Of a stretch of DNA of 64,000 nucleotides, positions 32,975 to 55,295 are shown in pieces; positions within the stretch are counted from its first letter, which is position 1; each line of letters begins with the position of its first letter. The translations under genes and the position numbers were made by a program. Under the pieces are notes generated by a model that saw nothing but the letters and a program-made list of their open reading frames with translations, ran no database searches and had not been told where the DNA came from. This stretch comes from Blastobasis lacticolella. Taxonomy: Eukaryota; Arthropoda; Insecta; Lepidoptera; Blastobasidae. The DNA lies in contig LR990060.1 in the NCBI GenBank assembly GCA_905147135.1, positions 14,028,001 to 14,092,000 of the forward strand, written 5' to 3'.

Positions 32975-34826
32975 TCACTTATTCCCACCATCCTTCACAT
33001 CTTTCTCCTTGAACCCACCCTTTACTTCATCTTTATTCTGTGCTGGTGCAATCATCAGCAAATTATTCCCGTTTCTGTCAGCCAAATTCCTGAACGGAAT
33101 TGTTGGACGCCATTTGGGGTAATAATACTGATTTCTGAGAAAGCGAAGGTGCTCCTTGCTGAAATATAACTCCTTACTGAAACCTCTTTGGAAGCATCTT
33201 CTGAATTCTTCGTTTTCGTCGTTGCCACACTTCTGATAGTCATTGTCGATGAAGACTTTGCTTCTGGGGTAGTCTTCTTCATTGAAGAATGGTCTCTTCA
33301 AGCGTAGTCTACGAGATTGAGGGCTAAGAGGTGACTCACATTTGACGGCCAGGTTTGAGTTCTCCTTATTGGTCGACAGTCCCTGATTCTTCTGCCACTC
33401 TAGCACTTCGCATAGCAGGCCGATGTATCTGTAAAGAATAGAAATTAAGACCTTCTTCTTTGTGGTGGTAGTTTTTTTTTATATTTAATTATGTAATATT
33501 TACGTGCCTGTCAATATGGATCTAGGGTTATGTACCTAATTGGAGTTTTAGATTTTTAGATCACTTAAAACGGCATGCTTTAATCTTATTTAATTGCGAG
33601 CTCATAACATCAAAAGAGTCATATTCTTTTTGTGTAGTGAGGCAAACGGACGGATAGTCCACCTGATGGAAAGTGGCCACCGTCGTCCAGAACAGTACAG
33701 GTAGACATGCCTTTTGAAAAACCCTTACAGGGCACCCGTATTCACAATCGAATAGCTTTCGGTCCTTATCAGTTGGAACGTTTGTTGTTAGTTGTAACAC
33801 TGAACGATCGCGCTCATGTGAGATCTCATACTAACGTTTCTAAGCACGGGTGTTAGAGACAGACCACCTAGGATCTCGCAGATCAGGAAAAGAATACCTA
33901 GCAGAGATTTCTTTGTATGTTTTCAACATTCAAAGAAAACTCTGTTAGTCAAGGGTGAAGATTATACCATGCAACTAATATCCAAGACTGTTATGTCCAT
34001 ATAGTCCTATACATAAATAGTATTATCACATATTATATGTGATATTATGTATCTATAAAAGTACCTGATAGCCATCCTTAGAATCTCGTTCTTAGACAGT
34101 TTCTTGTCTGGAGGATGCGTCGGCACCAGTCTCCTCAGCTCAGCGAATGCTCCGCTGACATTCTGCTGCCTCCAGCGCTCGCGACAGTTGGTGAACAGCT
34201 TTCGAGGAGGGCGCAGCAAACAGGAATTCAGTTGGGTGATATCCTCGGTCAGGTTCTGAGAGGATTGGAGGCTTTTAGGAGACTGGTCCGAAAATGTTCA
34301 ATCGTCTTTGTAAGAAACTTATTTGGGGAACATATTTGCAGGTAACGCAGTGTGCGGTGACTATTATATGCGAGCACTGCGCGTTTGCTGACTGACAACA
34401 AAAATAAGCTTTCAGCCATTAGCATAGAAACCAAAATTTCGCATAATTTTCCATGTTATGAGACAGGAGCGTCCGGTACCGGGTTCGAATCCCACTGCGG
34501 CCATGTACCAATGTGTCTATTCTGAGTTATGTACATTAGTTGAACAAAAACCGGTGCTCTTACCGTGAGGAAAAACATCGTGATGAAACCTGCACATTAA
34601 GGCGACTGAATGTGTAACCATGATCAAATTTGATTAGGTTCCCCTGGTAGGAGAGTTATTAACGCAAAGATGATGATGATTCCATCGAGTATGTCTATAT
34701 GGGCTATAGTTGTCATACCTGAAGTCTCCCAGACTGCCGCTCATCGTCGCTGTCAGGCAGACAGAAGTCGTCGCTGAGCATCTCGCTATCAGGCTCCTCG
34801 TCAGAGCAGGAGTCTTCGGACGCCAT
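32975..34826 (-). CDS. HLH3B: TAL1/SCL-type bHLH transcription factor (HLH3B-like)
   Basis: Three exons on the minus strand: 34826-34719 (36 codons from ATG, very acidic, SDEEPDSE and DSDDE), 34255-34065 (bHLH), 33428-32975 (stop). Together they encode 250 residues in one frame. The bHLH reads [16 protein letters not shown], then an FAELR helix, the loop [13 protein letters not shown] and helix 2 continuing across the splice ([15 protein letters not shown]). The [10 protein letters not shown] basic region and [13 protein letters not shown] loop are hallmarks of the TAL1/LYL1/Drosophila HLH3B group, which bind E-boxes as heterodimers with E proteins. The C-terminal tail is charged and unrecognised. 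The first intron is short, and exon 2 has a good pyrimidine tract before its acceptor (cctccaatcctctcag). It sits between JHEH genes without an obvious functional link. An upstream non-coding exon cannot be excluded. Confidence 0.88.
34465..34680 (+). repeat. SINE S2 copy in intron 1 of the bHLH gene
   Basis: Box-B-like gggttcgaatcccac, then atgtaccaatgtgtct and catcgtgatgaaacctgcac, ending with a (GATGAT) tail. Opposite in sense to the host gene. Confidence 0.6.
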
Positions 34827-35220: not shown

Positions 35221-35551
35221 CACCACCACCACCACTAGCGACCAGCGTAGCGTTTAGGGGATATTTATAGGCGCCGGTGACCACATTCCATCAAATACCC
35301 TGTTTGCCTGTTTGACTGCCGTTTATCATAGAATAACAAAACCGACAGAAAAAGTTCAGTCAAGTTTCAATCTTATAAGCATTATAGTACTGTAGCTTTA
35401 CTGCTTTTACGTAGTTTTATAAGATTAAAAAGAAATAAAACAACTTTAAATTAATAATTTTTATTTCAATAGTAAATATCAGAAATTAACGTTATAAATA
35501 AGTTTACATACTATCTGGGGTTAAATCTATGTCCATGATAACATTTAGTTT

Positions 35552-36113
35552 CTACTTACATGCTATCAAACTTCTTAGTACTATCAATAATGAAGAAAAA
35601 CACTTATAACCCAAACTTTCACTCTCACTATCGCTACTACTAGTGTACGGCTGATCACAATTTGCATCGTATTTCAAAACTATATCCATCATCTCGGTAT
35701 CATCTCGCTTATGTGTCATCTGGTAAGCCGTCAACTCAGCATAGTTTCTAGCTTCTAGATCCACGGTAGGCTGCTGACAGAGCCAAGTTGCAAGCTCGTA
35801 ATCCTCATAGCAGACGGCGATATGAAGTGCAGTAGCCCCTGAGGTTCTATCCCGGGCGTTCAAGTCTGCTCCTAAGTCTGCTAAGATTTCCAGTAGTCTC
35901 ACAGCATCTTGTTGTCTGTCTTCTTGCAATGATGTGAACGCACTGGTTCCCTTCATAGTCAAATTCTTGCAGAAGAAATTCATTTGTTTGGTCTAACCAC
36001 CATCCAGCTCTGAGCAGCAATGACAAGCACCCATGTCTACAGATATCATGAAACATGTTCTCCTTTCGGTGGTTTATAGCACCAAAAACTTCAGCAAATG
36101 CAAGAGATTCCAT
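35552..36113 (-). pseudogene. Bracovirus-type IkB-like ankyrin gene (vankyrin), frameshifted
   Basis: The minus-strand reading begins at an ATG ending at 36113 and runs through an N-terminal part containing MFHDICRHG and QCVHIIARR. It is then thrown out of frame around 35915-35935 and continues in another frame as ankyrin repeats: an LLEILADLGADLNARD unit, TALHIAVCYEDYELATWL, then an acidic Ser-rich tail. Such short, intronless ankyrin proteins resembling the inhibitor domain of IkB, but without its signal-response regions, are typical of polydnaviruses of braconid wasps, where they dampen NF-kB signalling in the host caterpillar. The host gene cactus is longer and intron-containing. With one frameshift this copy cannot make the whole protein unless the shift is a sequence error. 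The virus-like PTP next to it supports joint arrival. Origin is inferred from family resemblance. Confidence 0.72.
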
Positions 36114-36119
36114 TGTTTA

Positions 36120-37200
36120 AAAAAAGTAATAGCTTCGAAAATTACACGGTACCGTACAGAAGTAATTCCGATGTAAGACTGAAACGATTAATATCTAGAG
36201 CGTAAAATGTAGTATATTATTATCCTACGGGAACTTCAAATAAGTACTGATAAAGGTATTGACCGTGGTAACAAACCCGATAATATGTGTAGTGAAAGTG
36301 TAGTGAATAACCACGAAAGTCTTAAAACCTATATTAAAGGTATTGAACTAGCAATTGTGTTTTTAAAGTGTATGGGTTTTCTCGTACTAGTAAACTTTTA
36401 TTTTAGGTACCGCATAATTATCACCAACTGTTTTCCTTTTACATATTGATTACATTGTTTGTAGCAAAGAAATTGGAATGCTAGCGACCTTCCTATAACC
36501 ATGAAGGTCGCTAACATTCCAATATCTTTGGTTTGTAGCTATCTAAATCATGTAAAAATATTCCCATGACTAATATAAATAAATATAGTACAATTTTAAA
36601 TTCAATTAATGAAGTAAATGTATCTAGATAGTTTAAATGATTAATACATTATTACAATATTATCTTTATTACAACTTAAACCATGATTTCAAGGTGGATT
36701 TAAACTTAATGCGTAACAGAGATCATACTTTCAAATGAACACAAATTCATAGCAACATTAAATCACTAACATCTATTGCTGGGAACTTTGCCTTATTAGG
36801 AACTCAAGTTTTGATGTACCCTAAGTCCGTACTTCTCGAGGAACGAGCGAGCCGAGCGTTTAAAAGCTAAAACAAAAATATCCAGTTTTAATACAGATTC
36901 AGGAAGAATTTTAGCTACCTGTTCTAACAGTTAATGCCATAAATTCAATTATCGAGATCATTGTAAAGAGTACTTAAAATTCAGTGGCTAAACTGGAAAT
37001 GATATTACTAACCTAAAATGGCTTATTTATAATCCATAACAAATACCTATACCTATCGTTATCCTGTTCTAATACAATTTCAATTAATATATTTTCCCAA
37101 TTAACTTATTCAAAAAAGACCCTCATGCGAAATGATACTTCTAAACTTTTATTTTTACTAGACATTCTTTCGCTAAGCTGAACCATCTCAATATTTAATA
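36120..37200. other. AT-rich spacer between the two virus-like genes
   Basis: No gene seen. A short inverted repeat occurs near 36475-36530 (attggaatgctagcgacctt and its reverse after a short loop). Composition is notably AT-rich, as between genes of bracovirus circles, but also as in host DNA. Confidence 0.4.
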
Positions 37201-37210
37201 AAATTAAAAT

Positions 37211-38101
37211 TTATCGAGTACACCTCATACCCATTTCTTCATGAACATAAATATGGAGAACTTGACAACAGAAAGTATAGTCCTCCAAGCAATTTAGACG
37301 ACTATACTTTTGCTGTTGTATCCTTTGAAAAGTGTTGGCCACCGACACTAGCCCCGTTTCCCTAAATTGTATGACGCAGATATCTACAATTTCCTTAAAT
37401 TGTATGACGCAGGTACAGTACACTGTCGACCTACTAACTCCATCATGACAGTGAACAAGTATGGGTCCAAGTTTAGCATTAGGTAGTTTTTTTTCTAAAC
37501 TAATATTAATTTCATTCAGGCGGGTTACAAAATCTAAAAAGGCACTTGGGTCTCTTAATTCTTCCGCGGTGTATCTGTAATGTGATATCTGGCGTTCTCG
37601 GCCAGTGCGGTCAGTCAAAGCCAACATAGTTAAAATAAAATATGGTTCAACACTAATTTTTAGAGTCTTTACTGTAAATTCTTCACACTCTACTTAACCT
37701 TCTTCACTTGCACACCAGTGTTCATAGTTTCCTTTTTCACGAGGATTAGAAATTCATCACAACACTCCGAACTTTTTTGCACCAGATCATTCTCAAAAAT
37801 TTTGAAGACTTATTCGAATGTCTTATGCAGATATATTTGCGCTAGCCTTCGAACCTTTCATAACCCTTGATAAAGCTGGTCATCTGGTATTCTTCATTTG
37901 TACAAAAGGACAATAGCGAACATAGCTTAGCAACAAAAGACATCCGGCATAGCGAGGCTCCTCACTTCTACTTTTTTCTAGTCTTTTAGTCTCATTCATC
38001 ACTATTTGGCGATATTCTTGAGCGATGAGCTTAAAAGCATCTGGTTTGTCTATGAATACCAATAAATCAATCGCATAAATGTTCTCAAACTTCGTTCCCA
38101 T
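37211..38101 (-). pseudogene. Bracovirus-type protein tyrosine phosphatase, broken
   Basis: Two detached parts on the minus strand. 38101-37880 is an N-terminal segment (LIAQEYRQIVMNE) that ends at a stop. 37627-37211 is a C-terminal catalytic segment with DRTGRERQISHYRYT and the signature VHCHDGVSRST, which fits the HC-x5-R phosphate-binding loop of PTPs. The middle third of a normal PTP domain is missing or unreadable, with several stops between. In the second part an in-frame 33-base tandem duplication (around 37363-37411) repeats DICVIQF. PTPs are the largest gene family of wasp bracoviruses. The intronless form, the neighbouring ankyrin gene in the same orientation and the AT-rich spacing all point to inserted bracovirus DNA. 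It is a pseudogene as it stands, though the second segment alone is an open frame of 138 codons. Confidence 0.75.
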
Positions 38102-38109
38102 GATTTAAA

Positions 38110-38670
38110 CGTAAACGTATTATTTTTGTTTGATGAATTAAATATTTTATGTATGTGTCTCTAAGTTAAAACTGAAGCTTATGAAGCAGGTCTCTACCCG
38201 AAAGCTCTGCTTTTTTATCTGAATACTGTTTATTATACAGTCCTAAAAAGCCCCAGGTATTTAATTAATTATTAGTACACCTACTGACACGAGAACCATA
38301 AAATTCTTCCAACAACTGAAAAGTTTAATTACGCTTGTAACAATAAAACACAGCATGTAAATGAAATTTTTGTTACTCAATATATTTATACGAAACTGCC
38401 TTGTCGGAATTACGATTTAAACTAAACCACTTCTTAGTAAACAAAGAGGTTTTTAAACTCTGAGAAAACCTACACCTACATTTTTAGTATGAGCTAGTGA
38501 TTATTATTCTACCCATTTATGTCTGCTCATTGAAACATAATTTCATTGTATTTTATTAATAGATTTTCTGAGTATATAAAACAATAATAAAACAAATAAT
38601 GTAATTATCTCACGTATACAATAAATAATAATAAAGACCAAGGAAAAGAAAAATGATAATACTTACTTCA
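38110..38670. other. AT-rich DNA, nothing assigned
   Basis: No coding signal or clear repeat seen. May include the edge of the inserted virus-like segment. Confidence 0.3.
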
Positions 38671-38850
38671 TTAAATTTCTACATCGCTTTCTACAAATCT
38701 TTCACGAGAGCATATAACTTGTAATTCACGCCGCGCAAAATCATAATCTGGCTTTAAACGCTGTAAACCCCTCTCAATTAGTTCTTTGTTACATCCTGGA
38801 TTATCAAACTCCTTCTGCAGCTCCAGGGCTTGATCTTTTAAATAAAGGAT
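38671..38850 (-). CDS. Unrecognised exon-like frame
   Basis: A minus-strand frame of about 59 codons ends at TAA (38671-38673) and includes ELQKEFDNPGCNKELIERG and DYDFARRELQVICSRE. An AG at 38835-38836 could be an acceptor, and a gtaagt directly follows at 38661-38666, just past the stop in this frame. It has protein-like composition unlike the surrounding AT-rich DNA and is not an obvious repeat within this window. It could be the last coding exon of a host gene, part of the virus-like insertion, or a remnant. Function unknown. Confidence 0.3.
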   Translation of the reverse strand: MLYLKDQALELQKEFDNPGCNKELIERGLQRLKPDYDFARRELQVICSRERFVESDVEI

Positions 38851-39324
38851 TTATACTGTTAGACTCTTACGTTCGGCTTGCGAGTACATTTTCCGTAATG
38901 TTGATTGCACAAATATAAAATTATGGAATAAGCCATGGTGTTATATTTTTTTTCGATGCCCTAATTATTCAATTTCCCTATTAGGAATTTTTAATTAAAT
39001 AAATACATTTCATTTTCCTTATTTAAAATACATTATGGTAGACCTATTAATAACTTTTCAGTAATTTTATAATACGTCAACAAATAGTGTTATTCTCAAC
39101 TCAAAAGCCTCCGATAGAACAAATTTATAACTATCACGTAGGTAAAATTATCTGAGACCTAATGATGTCAGTTTATTAAGTGAAAGATTATTTGATTTAG
39201 TAAAATTTTAGTAAACCTGTCTCGCGGTATTAGATACTCAACACTCGTGCAACGGAACTATTTGACAGCCGGTGTCACACCTGTTAGATTTGGTTCATTT
39301 TTTAAATATTATAGATATTATTAA

Positions 39325-39555
39325 GATTTAAATTGTATCCGGAAGAGTAGAATAGCACCAGCCTACACTCATGGGTGTCGTATAAGGCGACTAAGAGTCT
39401 CCGTAGTCTGGAAAACGAGCATTTTCCATTGTTATATTTAAACACTGCGATCTCCAACCCGTCTGCCAAGCGTGGAAATTATGGCAATAATCTCTCCTTT
39501 CGTGGGAGAGGCCCTAAGTCCTGCAGTGGACTTTTGCGGGCTGTGATGATGTTTA
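39325..39555 (+). repeat. S3 copy
   Basis: agtagaatagcaccagccta ... gagaggccctaagtcctgca, ending in gatgatg. Confidence 0.6.
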
Positions 39556-39857
39556 AGAATTAAGAAGTATTAAAAGTCTCAGAGTTAAACACCCTATAAC
39601 TCAAAAATATCTCATCAAAGAGCGCTGATTCTATCGAAAGGCAAGGAATGAAGCTAACCCGTACTATCCTATAACTAAGAAGTCAACTGTTGTCATTATA
39701 ACTTAATATATACTCAAAATACTGTGTAATGTTTATCACTTCATCGAAAAAACCCAATATACTTAAGTTCAATGGGGGTTATTATTTGATAATTAGAATA
39801 AATATAACTTACAATATGAAAGTATTTACATAAATTTATTTCAGGAACTGGTGGAAA

Positions 39858-40248
39858 TGTCGCAGCCAAATGGTTAAATTAGCCGGTTAATTAAACGGCT
39901 AGCTATTTAAGCAGTTATTTAATTGAAAATTGGTCAAATTCATGAACTTTGAAAGTAAAGTCAAATGAACGATATTGCCTCGAGTTTACGGAGCTCTTCC
40001 ATTCATTGTCATAATGCTAACCTAAACTAACCGAATAGAAACCTAATGCAAACTATTATTATACTTTGAAGTTATTGTGGGTTAGTTAGCATTGGAACAA
40101 TGTGTGGAAGAGCTGCATAAACTCGAGGCAATATCGTTCTTTCAACATCACTTTAAAATCTTATGAAACTAACAAATTTTTAACTAAATAATTGCTCATA
40201 GAGCTAGCCGTTTAGTTAACCGGCTAATTTAACCATATGGCTGCGACA
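39858..40248. mobile_element. Palindromic MITE, 391 bases
   Basis: Terminal inverted repeats begin TGTCGCAGCCAAATGGTTAA on the left, matched by the reverse of the right end (TGTCGCAGCCATATGGTTAA). Inner arms also pair (cctcgagtttacggagctct against agctgcataaactcgaggca). GAAA flanks both sides (39854-39857 and 40249-40252), a possible target duplication. Confidence 0.72.
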
Positions 40249-40904
40249 GAAATATATAGAAAAAAAAACAAAATATAAAATATAAAATATGACAGTCAAT
40301 AGTAATCCCGTGTGCTGCTGAGCTGCTCTGTGGAGGTTTATTATTGCTCTTAAACCATTTTGGTATACATCATAATCGAGGATCCCAATATGACCTATCA
40401 GTTTTTTTACCAAAATACCAGTCAAAAGTCCAGCACCACTGCAAAGTGATCAAGGGACATGGTCGTATCTTTCCCCGAGCGATTTTGAACTCGTTATGCT
40501 GGACAGCTCGTTCATAAACCCTTTTTATTATTCACTTGTAATAAACCTTTATAGCAATAAACGATAGTCGAAATTAGTGTCAATGTGCGAAAATGCGTTA
40601 AAATTAATACTATGGGTCATAAAACTAATGAATGTTACTCATTAAACTCATCCTTCGAAAAAACTCATAAAACAATAAAAAATTAATCATACACCGTTAG
40701 TATTAGGTTTCTAATATTCTATTCAGGATTATTGTTCAAATTTTATAAAGCTGATAATATGAATTCTATTCATAAGTAGTTCAGCACTGATACATCAATA
40801 GAGAACAATATATTCATTTAGTAAATTCGCCTCTATTATTTTTGCCAAGTCCCGTAAATTTCGACTCGGCAAGCTCTCCTACGCGAAAGTCATGGCAGCC
40901 ATAT

Positions 40905-41165
40905 TCATCATCACAGCCCGTAACAGTCCACTGCAGGACTTAAGGCCTCTCTCACGAAAGGTTATTGGTTATTGCCATAATCTCCACGCTTGGCAGGCGG
41001 GTTGGAGATCGCAGTGTTTAAATATAACAATGGAAAATGCTGCTGCCCATTTTCCAGACTACGGAGACTCTTGGTCTTTTGCCTCGAAAACATTAGTCGC
41101 CTTGTACGACACCCATGAGTGTAAGGGTTTGGTGCTATTCTACTCTGCCGGACACCACACGGCCA
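40905..41165 (-). repeat. S3 copy, reversed
   Basis: Starts tcacagcccgtaacagtcca and ends tactctgccggacaccacac, the mirror of S3. The 134-codon frame through it is a by-product. Confidence 0.6.
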
Positions 41166-41639
41166 GCCATATTACAGAAATTATATTCAAACATAAGTGC
41201 TATACAATTATATTTCAAGTGAAGTTAGTTTCACTGTTACTAAATATTTTTGCTTTAGTGCCCGCCATTTTCGTCGTACAAACGACATTTTTATAAATAT
41301 CCTTAATATTATTTTTGCTATCAGGATTACCTACCACTTCATTGGAACAACAAATGCCACTGTGACTAATTATAGTCAGCTTTTTGTCGTATCGCCGGAT
41401 ATTGTTATCGGCGGAAACGCTATATTTACACGAGACATTTATTAATTAGCTATTTTACCTACATGTGTAACAGACTGCGGTTTCCATACTGTTCAAAGGT
41501 TATTATTGTTTTTTTTTAATATATGTAAAATGCTGTTTCGGAGAGACTTCCTTCTAAGTGCAATTAGGTTTTGGAACAAGCTCATTCTGGATAATTTGGT
41601 TGGGTTTGTAAGAGACGCGTGCTGAGCCAACTGAATAAT

Positions 41640-42680
41640 GGTGACACTATCCAAAACTGGCCATGAATGTACCATAAGTGAGACGTAGACGAGAGGTCCT
41701 GAGGTAAACCTATTTAGCGACTGAATGTGTAACCATTATCCAATCTGGTCATACTCCAGTGCTAACAGTGTCACGGAGTTCAAATAGAAGTCGGTCCACT
41801 ATAATTACATGAAATCTGAAAATCAGTGCTGCAGGGTATTAGCCCTCAGCGTAAACTAAGACTGTGCTCTTCCACGCAAAGCTTTTGATTAATATTATTA
41901 TCTTATTTTGTATGTACCCTAGGTATAAGGTCCTAATATACAAAATGTATTACGTTATTATTGTGTGGAAAAATAAATATTCTTATTCTAATTCATAATT
42001 TACAAACGTAGTTTGATTATATTTTCAATATTACGCTATTAAAGCCAATGAAATTTTGTAGACGTGATCCAGAAACGAATGTCAATGCTTTGACAATTTT
42101 TTATTTAAATATGTCGTTTTTAAGTTGCGCGGGATCTCGTGTATGTAGCCATTCACTATGACAAAATAATTGTGTAAAAGGGCCAAAGAGCACGTTTCGG
42201 GGTACCCCGTCATTTTTGTTTTATTATTTGCTGTTCTAAATATACAGGTCTGTGACAGACAGACCGCGGAAGCTTAGTAAATGGGATATGTGCACTGTTC
42301 GGGTACCTACGCAGCCCTAGAAAGAATGGTTCTATCTAGTACCTATGATCTGTATAAACTGACTTGTCTTATTTGGTAAACAAACAGTGACCAAAATCAC
42401 GACTTGCCGTATCAATCACGCTACGTATATTGTGTATAGATGTCGAGAATTATAAAAGAAACACATAGAATGTGAATTTCAATGAAGCAACACATTATCC
42501 ATTTGAATACATAATTTCCTTAAACAAATAAGACAAGTCAGTATGGACAGATTATATGTAGCTTTGAACTATATCCACGCTTTGGCTTGAGTAGCAACCG
42601 CGCCTTGAATCCTCACTTATTTATTACATGGAATCCTAAAAGAAGGACTACATTCTATCATTGCAGCACTCGACACCGTC
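41640..42680. other. S2 remnant and unassigned DNA
   Basis: 41700-41880 contains decayed S2 pieces (gactgaatgtgtaaccatta). The remainder to 42680 shows no gene. Confidence 0.35.
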
Positions 42681-53200: not shown

Positions 53201-53434
53201 CACACAGGCCCCCAGTACCCGGCGGCCCCGCAATTCCGGACTATGGTAGCGGTCACGGTAACGGCGGGGCAGGGGGTGCGAAGAATCACCGGATGCGACC
53301 AGGCTACCACAAAGCACGACCACTGGCCCTGGCTTATGACATTAACATTGTGATATCCTTTATCTGTTGTAACATTATTTTAAGAATAATGACTACTCAA
53401 TAATTTGATGACATTTGACGTGTAAATTTATGTT

Positions 53435-55295
53435 ATGAACTCATTTTTCAGGAAGCCGGATCATCGCAGATGGACGTGGGTTAGTCCCGATGGTGTCACA
53501 AAAAATGAGATTGACTTCATCCTATCTACGAAACGGCATATATTCAATAATGTTTCGGTGATCAATAGCGTTAAAATTGGCAGTGATCACCGCTTGGTAA
53601 GAGGCACATTGAATATTAATCCCCAGCTGGAAAGATCGAGATTGATGAAGTCCACGCTCCGGCCTATACCCATCCAAATCCAAAACCCCGAGAGCTTTCA
53701 ACTCGAATTACAAAATCGCTTCGAGTGCCTAGGAGAGTGCGTCGACGTGGACGACTATAATAACAGGTTCGTGGAAACTGTCTATACGGTTGGGTCAAAG
53801 TTTTATAAGGCCTGCCGTACAAAAAGAACAAACAAAATCTCTGACGATACCCTCAAACTCATCGAAGAAAGACGCGGAATGACTCTGCAATCCCCTGATG
53901 ATGTCTCTCAATTTAGGCGACTTAATCGGCAGATCTATGCTTGCTTCTGTGCCATGCACAGAAGCATAGTCATATTGTTCTTCAAGAAAGGTGATAAGGC
54001 TCTCTTGAAGAACTTCAGACCAATATCGCTGCTGACCCATGTCTATAAGCTGTTTTCGAGAGTCATTACGAATCGTCTCACACGCAGGTTTGATGACTTC
54101 CAGCCTCCCGAACAAGCCGGATTCCGAAAATGTTTTAGTACCATAGACCACATACATACGCTGCGGCAGGTTGTACAGAAGACCGAAGAGTATAACCGGC
54201 CATTATGTTTGGCGTTTGTGGACTATGAGAAAGCCTTCGATTCGATCGAAACTTGGGCGGTGCTCCAGTCTTTACAGCGGTGCCAAAGTGACTTTCGATA
54301 TATCGAAGCACTGAAGTGTTTGTACGAAAACGCCACCATGTCAGTTCGTCTCCAGGACAAGACCACATAACCTATTCAGCTGCAGCGAGGTGTTAGACAA
54401 GGTGATGTCATATCACCGAAGTTGTTCACCGCTGCACTGGAGGATATCTTTAGGCTTTTGGACTGGGACGGACTTGGCATCAATATTAACGGCGAGTACC
54501 TCACGCACCTCAGATTTGCTGACGATATCGTAGTCATGGCTGAAACCCTGGAAGACTTGGGCAAAATGCTCGATGACCTCTGTAGTGCCTCTCAACAAGT
54601 AGGTCTTAAAATGAACATGGACAAGACGAAAATTATGTCAAATGTCCATGTTGTGCCTACTCCAGTGACAGTTGGAGGCACACCACTTGAAGTTGTTGAC
54701 GACTATACATACCTAGGACAAATAGTCCGGCTAGGTAGGTCCAATTTCGAGAAAGAGGTCAATCGACGAATCCAACTCGGTTGGGCAGCGTTCGGGAAGC
54801 TACGCCACATATTTTCGTCCCAATTACCGCAGTGTCTCAAGACGAAGGTCTTTGACCAATGTGTGTTGCCAGTGATGACTTACGGATCTGAAACGTGGCC
54901 ACTCACTATGGGCCTTATAAGAAAGCTCACTGTTACCCAAAGGGCACAATGGAAAGAGCTATGCTCGGAGTTTCTTTGCGCGATCGACTCAGAAATGAGG
55001 AGATCCGCAAGCGTACCAAGGTCACCGACATAGCTCTAAGGATTGCCAGACTGAAATGGCAGTGGGCAGGGCACATAGCTCGAAGAACAGATGGCCGATG
55101 GGGCAGTAAAGTTCTCGAGTGGCAACCACGTACCGGTAGACGCAGCGTGGGTAGGCCTCCTACAAGGTGGACCGACGACCTGGTATGGATCGCAGGTACC
55201 AGCTGGATGCGGAAAGCACCGGTTTATGTGGAGATCTCTGGGAGAGGCCTATGCCCAGCAGTGGGCGTCTTATGGCTGATATGATGATGATGATG
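53435..55295 (+). mobile_element. RTE-clade non-LTR retrotransposon, internally deleted
   Basis: First frame 53435-54370: the end of an apurinic-type endonuclease domain (DFILSTKRHIF, GSDHRLV), then an abrupt join to a reverse transcriptase core (LFFKKGDKALLKNFRPISLL, QAGFRKCFSTIDHI, AFVDYEKAFDSI), ending at a stop. 54422-55033: the RT continues with LRFADDIVVMAE (the FADD catalytic box), then LGQIVRLGRSNFEKEVNRRI. A frame change is followed by the C-terminal tail in 54970-55284. The 3' end is a (GATGAT) tract, as in RTE elements. The join at about 53943-53965 lacks the linker and first RT motifs. Stops and frame changes show it is dead. Confidence 0.85.

What the first reader, a model, noticed from the sequence alone, without database searches (positions are those of the whole stretch)
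35552..38101. Probable bracovirus DNA (ankyrin and PTP genes) inserted between host JHEH genes
Two intronless gene remnants in the same orientation, an IkB-like ankyrin protein and a protein tyrosine phosphatase with HC-x5-R signature, sit about 1.1 kb apart in AT-rich DNA. These two families are the hallmark genes of wasp bracoviruses, injected into caterpillars with wasp eggs. Finding both together beside a bHLH gene and a JHEH cluster suggests a germline integration of a wasp-virus circle. Similar transfers to Lepidoptera are known, but this locus may not be described.
Basis: partly seen in the sequence, partly recalled or inferred. Interest (0 to 1): 0.82.

Follow-up and report, generated by a model that had tools for sequence, protein, structure and literature searches.

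The report
Old bracovirus insert, one of many
A moth chromosome carries a decayed piece of wasp-virus DNA with two broken genes, and it is one old copy of a large family of similar pieces spread over the moth's chromosomes, some of them young and with whole genes.

Summary
In detail: broken, intronless ankyrin and tyrosine-phosphatase genes lie 1.1 kb apart on the minus strand. Nearest named relatives are polydnavirus vankyrins and a Cotesia vestalis bracovirus PTP. The bracovirus reading is supported, but this is no single integration: it is one old, left-truncated copy (about 35363-40882) of a dispersed repeat, matched at 14 fetched places. Six of these share an outer end that starts with the bracovirus host-integration-motif (HIM) border ACCAG; this end occurs 84 times in the genome, reversed control 0. 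The window's right end holds the inner HIM repeat TAAATTTC. A young family with similar ends and intact PTP and ankyrin genes has 40 left ends and a 3-bp target duplication in 7 of 7 copies with both ends read, which suits a staggered, DDE-type cut better than the Xer-type recombinase proposed in print. Whether copies multiplied inside the moth or came by repeated wasp injection is open. Bracovirus germline insertions in moths are known; copy number, mixed ages and the duplication stand out.

The parts
35363..40882 (-). Whole bracovirus-derived repeat copy, left terminus missing
   Evidence: DNA matches to 14 loci L010-L023 starting at 35363, 35410-35413, 35487 or 35512-35513; blocks 72-95% identical; 12 of 14 match beyond the ankyrin block, 6 of 14 reach the PTP within the stretch fetched. 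Right boundary where copies on C25 and C13 stop matching (40881, 40885)
35552..36116 (-). Broken ankyrin (vankyrin-type) gene, two open pieces in different frames
   Evidence: nearest relatives polydnavirus vankyrins and a Cydia pomonella protein
37211..38104 (-). Broken PTP gene, pieces in three frames; catalytic piece 37211-37693 with C-x5-R
   Evidence: 43% over 87 aa with a Cotesia vestalis bracovirus PTP
40854..40882 (-). Right terminus, HIM-like; contains TAAATTTC at 40855-40862
   Evidence: 21 of 30 match to the reverse of the family's left end; best other 1-kb piece of the window 18; 0 of 3000 shuffles of 40671-41670 reach 21. Over whole shuffled windows 21 is not rare
39335..39551 (.). 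Later insertion inside the copy (SINE-like)
   Evidence: L014, L018 and L019 match on both sides of it (39331/39553) but not across; inverted relative at 40905-41165
39858..40248 (.). Palindromic MITE-like insertion inside the copy
   Evidence: 164-nt arms, 83% complementary; 95% match in L026; skipped by the matches of L014, L018 and of the C25 right piece
34007..34826 (-). Neighbouring TAL1-like bHLH gene, first coding exons (host gene)

Best explanation
The feature is the decayed remnant of a bracovirus circle that was linearised at its host integration motif (HIM) and joined to a moth germline chromosome, just upstream of a bHLH gene. It carried a vankyrin and a PTP gene, both now broken. 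It belongs to a repeat family whose members begin with the HIM border (A)CCAGG..GAAACTTA and end with an inverted form of it. A younger sister family (ACAGG..CCTGT) is flanked by 3-bp target duplications with a T-N-A preference, so at least that family inserted by a staggered cut, as DDE transposases and integrases make. Shown: gene identity, family, ends, number of ends, duplication in the young family. Inferred: that the window copy inserted in the same way, and that much of the copy number arose by later copying inside the moth germline with the HIM ends acting as transposon ends (about even odds).
For: Gene pieces. Relatives: ankyrin nearest Hyposoter didymator ichnovirus Vank5 (44%), a Cydia pomonella protein (45%), Campoletis vankyrins, Glyptapanteles viral ankyrins; PTP nearest Cotesia vestalis bracovirus P0013, 83 bits (BLASTP), against 42 bits for the best solved cellular PTP (phmmer). 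Dispersed family: 150 ankyrin and 151 PTP matches with only 150 candidates scored each. Ends: shared left terminus in L011, L012, L014, L015, L016, L021 with different flanks; 84 genome hits against 0 for the reversed pattern; 18 of the 26 hits with 0-1 mismatch lie within 7 kb of a listed ankyrin or PTP match (counted by eye). Bracovirus HIM borders ACCAG/CTGGT with GAAATTTA/TAAATTTC (Cotesia) and ACTAG/CTAGT (Microplitis), ichnovirus borders different (passages). Young family: 40 left ends; 3-bp duplication 7 of 7; first base T 17 of 22, third base A 14 of 22. Old family: C25 copy CCA/CCA if the unit starts at CCAGG.
Against: No bracovirus or wasp DNA was at hand, so no colinear match to a circle; two scans of viral contigs found no relative. 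The best single ankyrin match is an ichnovirus protein. The window copy lacks its left terminus, and its right 5-mer reads CCTAC, not CTGGT. The old family's duplication is weak: C25 exact, C13 two of three bases, and only after the start was moved by one base once one search was seen; with the start at ACCAG it is 0 of 2. Copies may come from repeated injections rather than in-host copying: nested sublineages fit both. Other bracovirus gene families and the direct-repeat junction were not looked for.
Confidence: 0.75

Rival explanations
1. Every copy is an independent HIM-mediated integration from injected wasp particles; nothing moved again inside the moth.
For: HIM integration alone gives the same ends each time (passages). 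The 319-residue PTP frame is open in the 22 young copies compared, and nonsynonymous differences are rarer than synonymous ones (pN/pS 0.46, few events; old ankyrin piece 0.58 in seven comparisons with the window), as expected if the source lived under selection in wasps.
Against: 40 left ends on 19 of 45 sequences, copies without a substitution over about 1.9 kb on different chromosomes, and shared deletions in subsets need many fixed germline events from a polymorphic wasp source.
Confidence: 0.4
2. A native moth mobile element carrying PTP and ankyrin genes, from which bracoviruses took their genes.
For: High copy number, short terminal inverted repeats, target duplication; the nearest intact relatives are Cydia pomonella proteins (ankyrin 77%; PTP 70% over 59% of the query).
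Against: The ends resemble a bracovirus recombination site; PTP relatives occur in Cotesia and Glyptapanteles; no transposase: the five ATG-started frames of 100 aa or more in L030, which holds all but the left 785 bases of the C11 copy, are PTP or ankyrin genes.
Confidence: 0.08
3. Source was a banchine ichnovirus (Glypta, Apophua), whose wasps attack leafroller moths (recalled) and which also carry PTP and ankyrin genes (recalled).
For: Best single ankyrin match is an ichnovirus vankyrin, though from a campoplegine wasp.
Against: No HIMs were found for GfIV and AsIV in print, and ichnovirus HIM borders differ (passages).
Confidence: 0.07
4. Contamination or misassembly.
For: None found; read depth could not be tested.
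Against: Different flanks with matched target triplets in the young family; later insertions nested in the window copy; decayed genes.
Confidence: 0.01

Closest known systems
HIM-mediated germline integrations of polydnavirus circles in Lepidoptera (Heisserer et al. 2023, msad050: not held; seen only as a citation in PMC11676520, passages; further details recalled)
   Same: Circle DNA joined at HIM ends in the moth germline
   Different: Here 124 HIM-type ends in one genome (84 + 40), in families of different age, with 3-bp duplications; whether that paper reports the like could not be checked
Bracovirus insertions in Danaus, Bombyx, Spodoptera (Gasmi et al. 2015, PMC4574769, passages)
   Same: Bracovirus genes fixed in moth and butterfly genomes
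   Different: The passages tell of BEN and lectin-type genes in few insertions; the words ankyrin and PTP do not occur in the main text
Non-autonomous DNA transposons (inverted ends, 3-bp duplication; recalled)
   Same: Short inverted ends, 3-bp duplication, near-identical copies
   Different: The young unit is about 10 kb and carries phosphatase and ankyrin genes; no transposase seen in the C11 copy

Membership tests
HIM-integrated bracovirus circle | 5-nt HIM border ACCAG/CTGGT (or ACTAG/CTAGT) at both ends | tested here: inconclusive
   Left, six relatives: ACCAG in four, GCCAG in L014, ACTAG in L021. Right: CCTAG in two relatives, CCTAC in the window. The window's left end is missing.
HIM-integrated bracovirus circle | Inner inverted repeat GAAATTTA/TAAATTTC | tested here: met
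   Window TAAATTTC exact at 40855-40862; left GAAACTTA in relatives, 7 of 8
HIM-integrated bracovirus circle | Virulence gene families of bracoviruses (PTP, vankyrin) | tested here: met
HIM-integrated bracovirus circle | Colinear DNA match to a circle or proviral segment | not testable with these tools
   No wasp genomes held; viral-contig scans gave no relative
HIM-integrated bracovirus circle | Single internal direct-repeat junction | not tested
   -
DNA transposon | Terminal inverted repeats and target duplication of fixed length | tested here: met
   Young family: ACAGG/CCTGT, 3 bp in 7 of 7. Old family, to which the window belongs: 1 of 2 exact, post hoc; window itself not testable
DNA transposon | Transposase encoded by the unit | tested here: not met
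   In the C11 copy the ATG-started frames of 100 aa or more are PTP or ankyrin genes; an autonomous partner elsewhere was not sought

The most novel reading that the evidence does not exclude
A bracovirus circle has become a transposon of the moth: its HIM ends are recognised by a DDE-type enzyme, it inserts with a 3-bp duplication at T-N-A sites, and over long times it has spread intact wasp virulence genes through the moth germline in several waves. The window holds a fossil of an early wave. It would follow that HIM integration itself is a transposition-type reaction rather than Xer-type recombination.
Probability: 0.45. Interest if true: 0.88.

Novelty: new variant of a known kind. Interest (0 to 1): 0.68.

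Why it matters
Transfer of wasp-virus genes to moths is known, but how the circles join host DNA is debated: Xer-like viral recombinases and host retroviral-type integrases have been proposed (PMC8460044, PMC8549517, passages). A constant 3-bp target duplication at paired germline ends is evidence about that chemistry which unpaired junction reads do not give. A high-copy family carrying intact PTP and ankyrin genes also shows that virulence genes of parasites can become part of a host's repeat load, open to domestication. Both points can be tested with public moth and wasp genomes.

Tried and rejected
Unique insertion: rejected. Ordinary host PTP or cactus gene: rejected by copy number, absence of introns and relatives. 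The 1.3-kb segment shared by the C13 and C22 copies looked at first like a moth transposon that would prove copying inside the moth; it holds a PTP-like frame, so it is rather a deletion in the other copies, and that test failed. Left terminus of the window copy: none above chance. Scans of viral contigs: nothing. Papers: searches (listings) and passages. The words 'target site' and 'TSD' do not occur in PMC8549517, nor 'target site' and 'duplicat' in PMC8460044. In what I saw there is no report of a target duplication at HIM junctions nor of a high-copy bracovirus family in a moth; but Heisserer 2023, the most relevant paper, is not held, so absence from print is not shown. A planned test (pattern TAA plus the young left end, predicted to hit only C12, C13, C16 and C18 among the copies whose right flank was read) did not complete.

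Full report
Observation. On the minus strand, open pieces 35552-35992 and 35847-36116 make up a broken ankyrin gene, and 37211-37693, 37690-37809, 37842-37961 and 37880-38104 a broken PTP gene. Pfam gives Ank (2.4e-7) for the first piece and Y_phosphatase (5.2e-14) for 37211-37693; the other pieces give no ankyrin or PTP match. The distance between the genes is 1.1 kb. The flank on the left is a TAL1-like bHLH gene whose start codon lies about 540 bases away. A JHEH exon is 25 kb to the left; no JHEH on the right was tested.

Relatives. The ankyrin piece finds nine proteins: Hyposoter didymator ichnovirus Vank5 (44%), a Cydia pomonella 'cactus-like' protein (45%), two Campoletis sonorensis ichnovirus vankyrins, two Glyptapanteles viral ankyrins, and three without a name. 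The PTP piece matches a Cotesia vestalis bracovirus PTP best among the 124 proteins held at that point (43% over 87 residues, 83 bits by BLASTP); the best solved cellular PTP scores 42 bits by phmmer. The intact young PTP has its nearest named relatives in Cydia pomonella (70% over 59% of it), Cotesia glomerata (53%) and Cotesia vestalis bracovirus (51%), and the intact young ankyrin protein in Cydia pomonella (77%). The moth is not named by any tool; chromosome-sized contigs numbered to C30 in 577 Mb and the Cydia matches suggest a tortricid (inference).

A repeat, not a single insertion. The genome search gives 150 matches to the ankyrin piece, 151 to the PTP piece and 151 to the Pfam PTP model; only 150 of 414, 651 and 963 candidates were scored, so these are lower bounds, and distant family members are among them. 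DNA of the window matches 14 fetched loci (L010-L023) in blocks of 72-95% identity. Twelve of the 14 match beyond the ankyrin block, in the order of the window, and six reach the PTP within the stretch fetched; L016 and L023 match only the ankyrin block. In the ankyrin block the window differs from seven relatives that cover it by 7-11%. Relatives form subgroups with different left extensions. A second family with intact 181-residue ankyrin frames and, in four of five fetched members, intact 300-residue PTP frames has the same layout; members on C2 (two), C18 and C8 (two) agree at 97.5-99.3%.

The ends. Six relatives with different flanks begin at ACCAGGGGAGCTTTTCAAGTCGAAACTTAG or within two changes of it. 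Bracovirus HIMs, the sites where circles open to join host DNA, have borders ACCAG/CTGGT with GAAATTTA/TAAATTTC in Cotesia, and ACTAG/CTAGT in Microplitis; ichnovirus HIMs differ (PMC8460044 and PMC7843510, passages). The pattern occurs 84 times in the genome with up to three mismatches, against 0 for the reversed control. Of the 26 hits with none or one mismatch, 18 lie within 7 kb of a listed ankyrin or PTP match and 8 do not; I counted this by eye, and those lists are capped. Homology between copies ends on the right at an inverted form of the same motif. In the window this is 40854-40882, with TAAATTTC exact; the score of 21 of 30 was reached in 0 of 3000 shuffles of the kilobase that holds it, and the best other of 63 1-kb pieces of the window reaches 18. 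Over whole shuffled windows 21 is not rare (mean best 19, largest 22 in 60 shuffles), so the argument rests on the place, where the copies stop matching.

Young family. Five copies of a roughly 10-kb unit were compared piece by piece. The C11 copy holds PTP frames of 343, 343 and 318 residues and an ankyrin frame of 169 on one strand, and a PTP of 319 on the other. It begins ACAGG and ends CCTGT. In all 7 copies with both ends read the flanking triplets agree: TGA, TAA, ACA, AAA, TCA, TTA, TAT. For an eighth copy the stretch I fetched did not reach its left end (one search shows where it lies). The right end is at the same base in 22 of 25 copies examined; the other three do not show it within the stretch read. 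The first target base is T in 17 of 22 and the third A in 14 of 22. The left end occurs 40 times, on 19 of the 45 sequences, reversed control 0. Its likeness to the old family's left end is 20 of 30. Twenty-two copies of the 319-residue gene give pN/pS 0.46 from few events (a twenty-third, L047, was dropped because my script picked another frame). Twenty non-coding tails differ by 0.64% on average, and two pairs of copies show no substitution over about 1.9 kb on different chromosomes; C13 and C22 form an outlying pair.

Old family duplication. For two old copies both ends were read. If the unit starts at ACCAG no 3-bp duplication is seen (0 of 2). In one search the base before CCAG is A in only 48 of 84 hits (my count), while changes within CCAG are far rarer, so the unit may start at CCAGG. 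Then the C25 copy is flanked by CCA and CCA, and the C13 copy by ACG and GCG. This shift was made after seeing the data and counts as weak support.

Mechanism. Most likely: a circle opened at its HIM, its ends joined to a staggered cut in moth DNA, and gap repair made the 3-bp duplication. This is what DDE enzymes do; tyrosine recombinases of the Xer type do not leave such duplications (established knowledge). The excess of 1-2-bp microhomologies reported at junctions (PMC8549517, passages) would follow from a T-N-A target preference beside ends that carry A and T (inference). Whether the units then spread by themselves is open. Near-identity, nested sublineages and shared internal deletions suit spread inside the moth; constraint on coding sequence and repeated parasitism suit repeated injection. 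My attempt to separate these with a shared 1.3-kb segment failed. Other bracovirus gene families and the internal direct-repeat junction were not looked for.

Known and new. Bracovirus DNA in moth germlines is known (PMC4574769, passages; Heisserer 2023, not held, cited in PMC11676520). The window locus alone is a new member of that kind. The number of HIM-type ends in one genome, the coexistence of dead and intact families, and a constant 3-bp duplication in the young family make it a variant worth a specialist's look; how far Heisserer 2023 already reports these I could not check.

Noticed in passing
G000:C8:16525530-16564070: A tandem array of near-identical 343-residue PTP frames on one strand, most of them spaced about 1.4 kb or 2.8 kb.
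   Followed up: no
G000:C8: C8 carries an unusually large share of the listed PTP and ankyrin matches (7 of 40 young left ends, 9 of 84 old ones); it may be a repeat-rich or special chromosome.
   Followed up: no
window 39858-40248: Long palindromic MITE-like element inserted in the copy; 95% match in L026.
   Followed up: partly
window 39335-39551 and 40905-41165: Two inverted copies of a SINE-like repeat, one inside the insert and one just outside its right end.
   Followed up: partly
window 53426-55033: Two adjacent open pieces of a reverse transcriptase (RVT_1), probably a LINE.
   Followed up: no
L010 (C1) and L017 (C15): 98% identical over their whole 3.4 kb; HIM-type left ends lie 5-6 kb away (C1:25203396, C15:15822667), so these are longer units than the window copy.
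   Followed up: no
window 36465-36531: A short self-complementary insertion in the spacer between the two genes; several relatives match on both sides but not across it.
   Followed up: no
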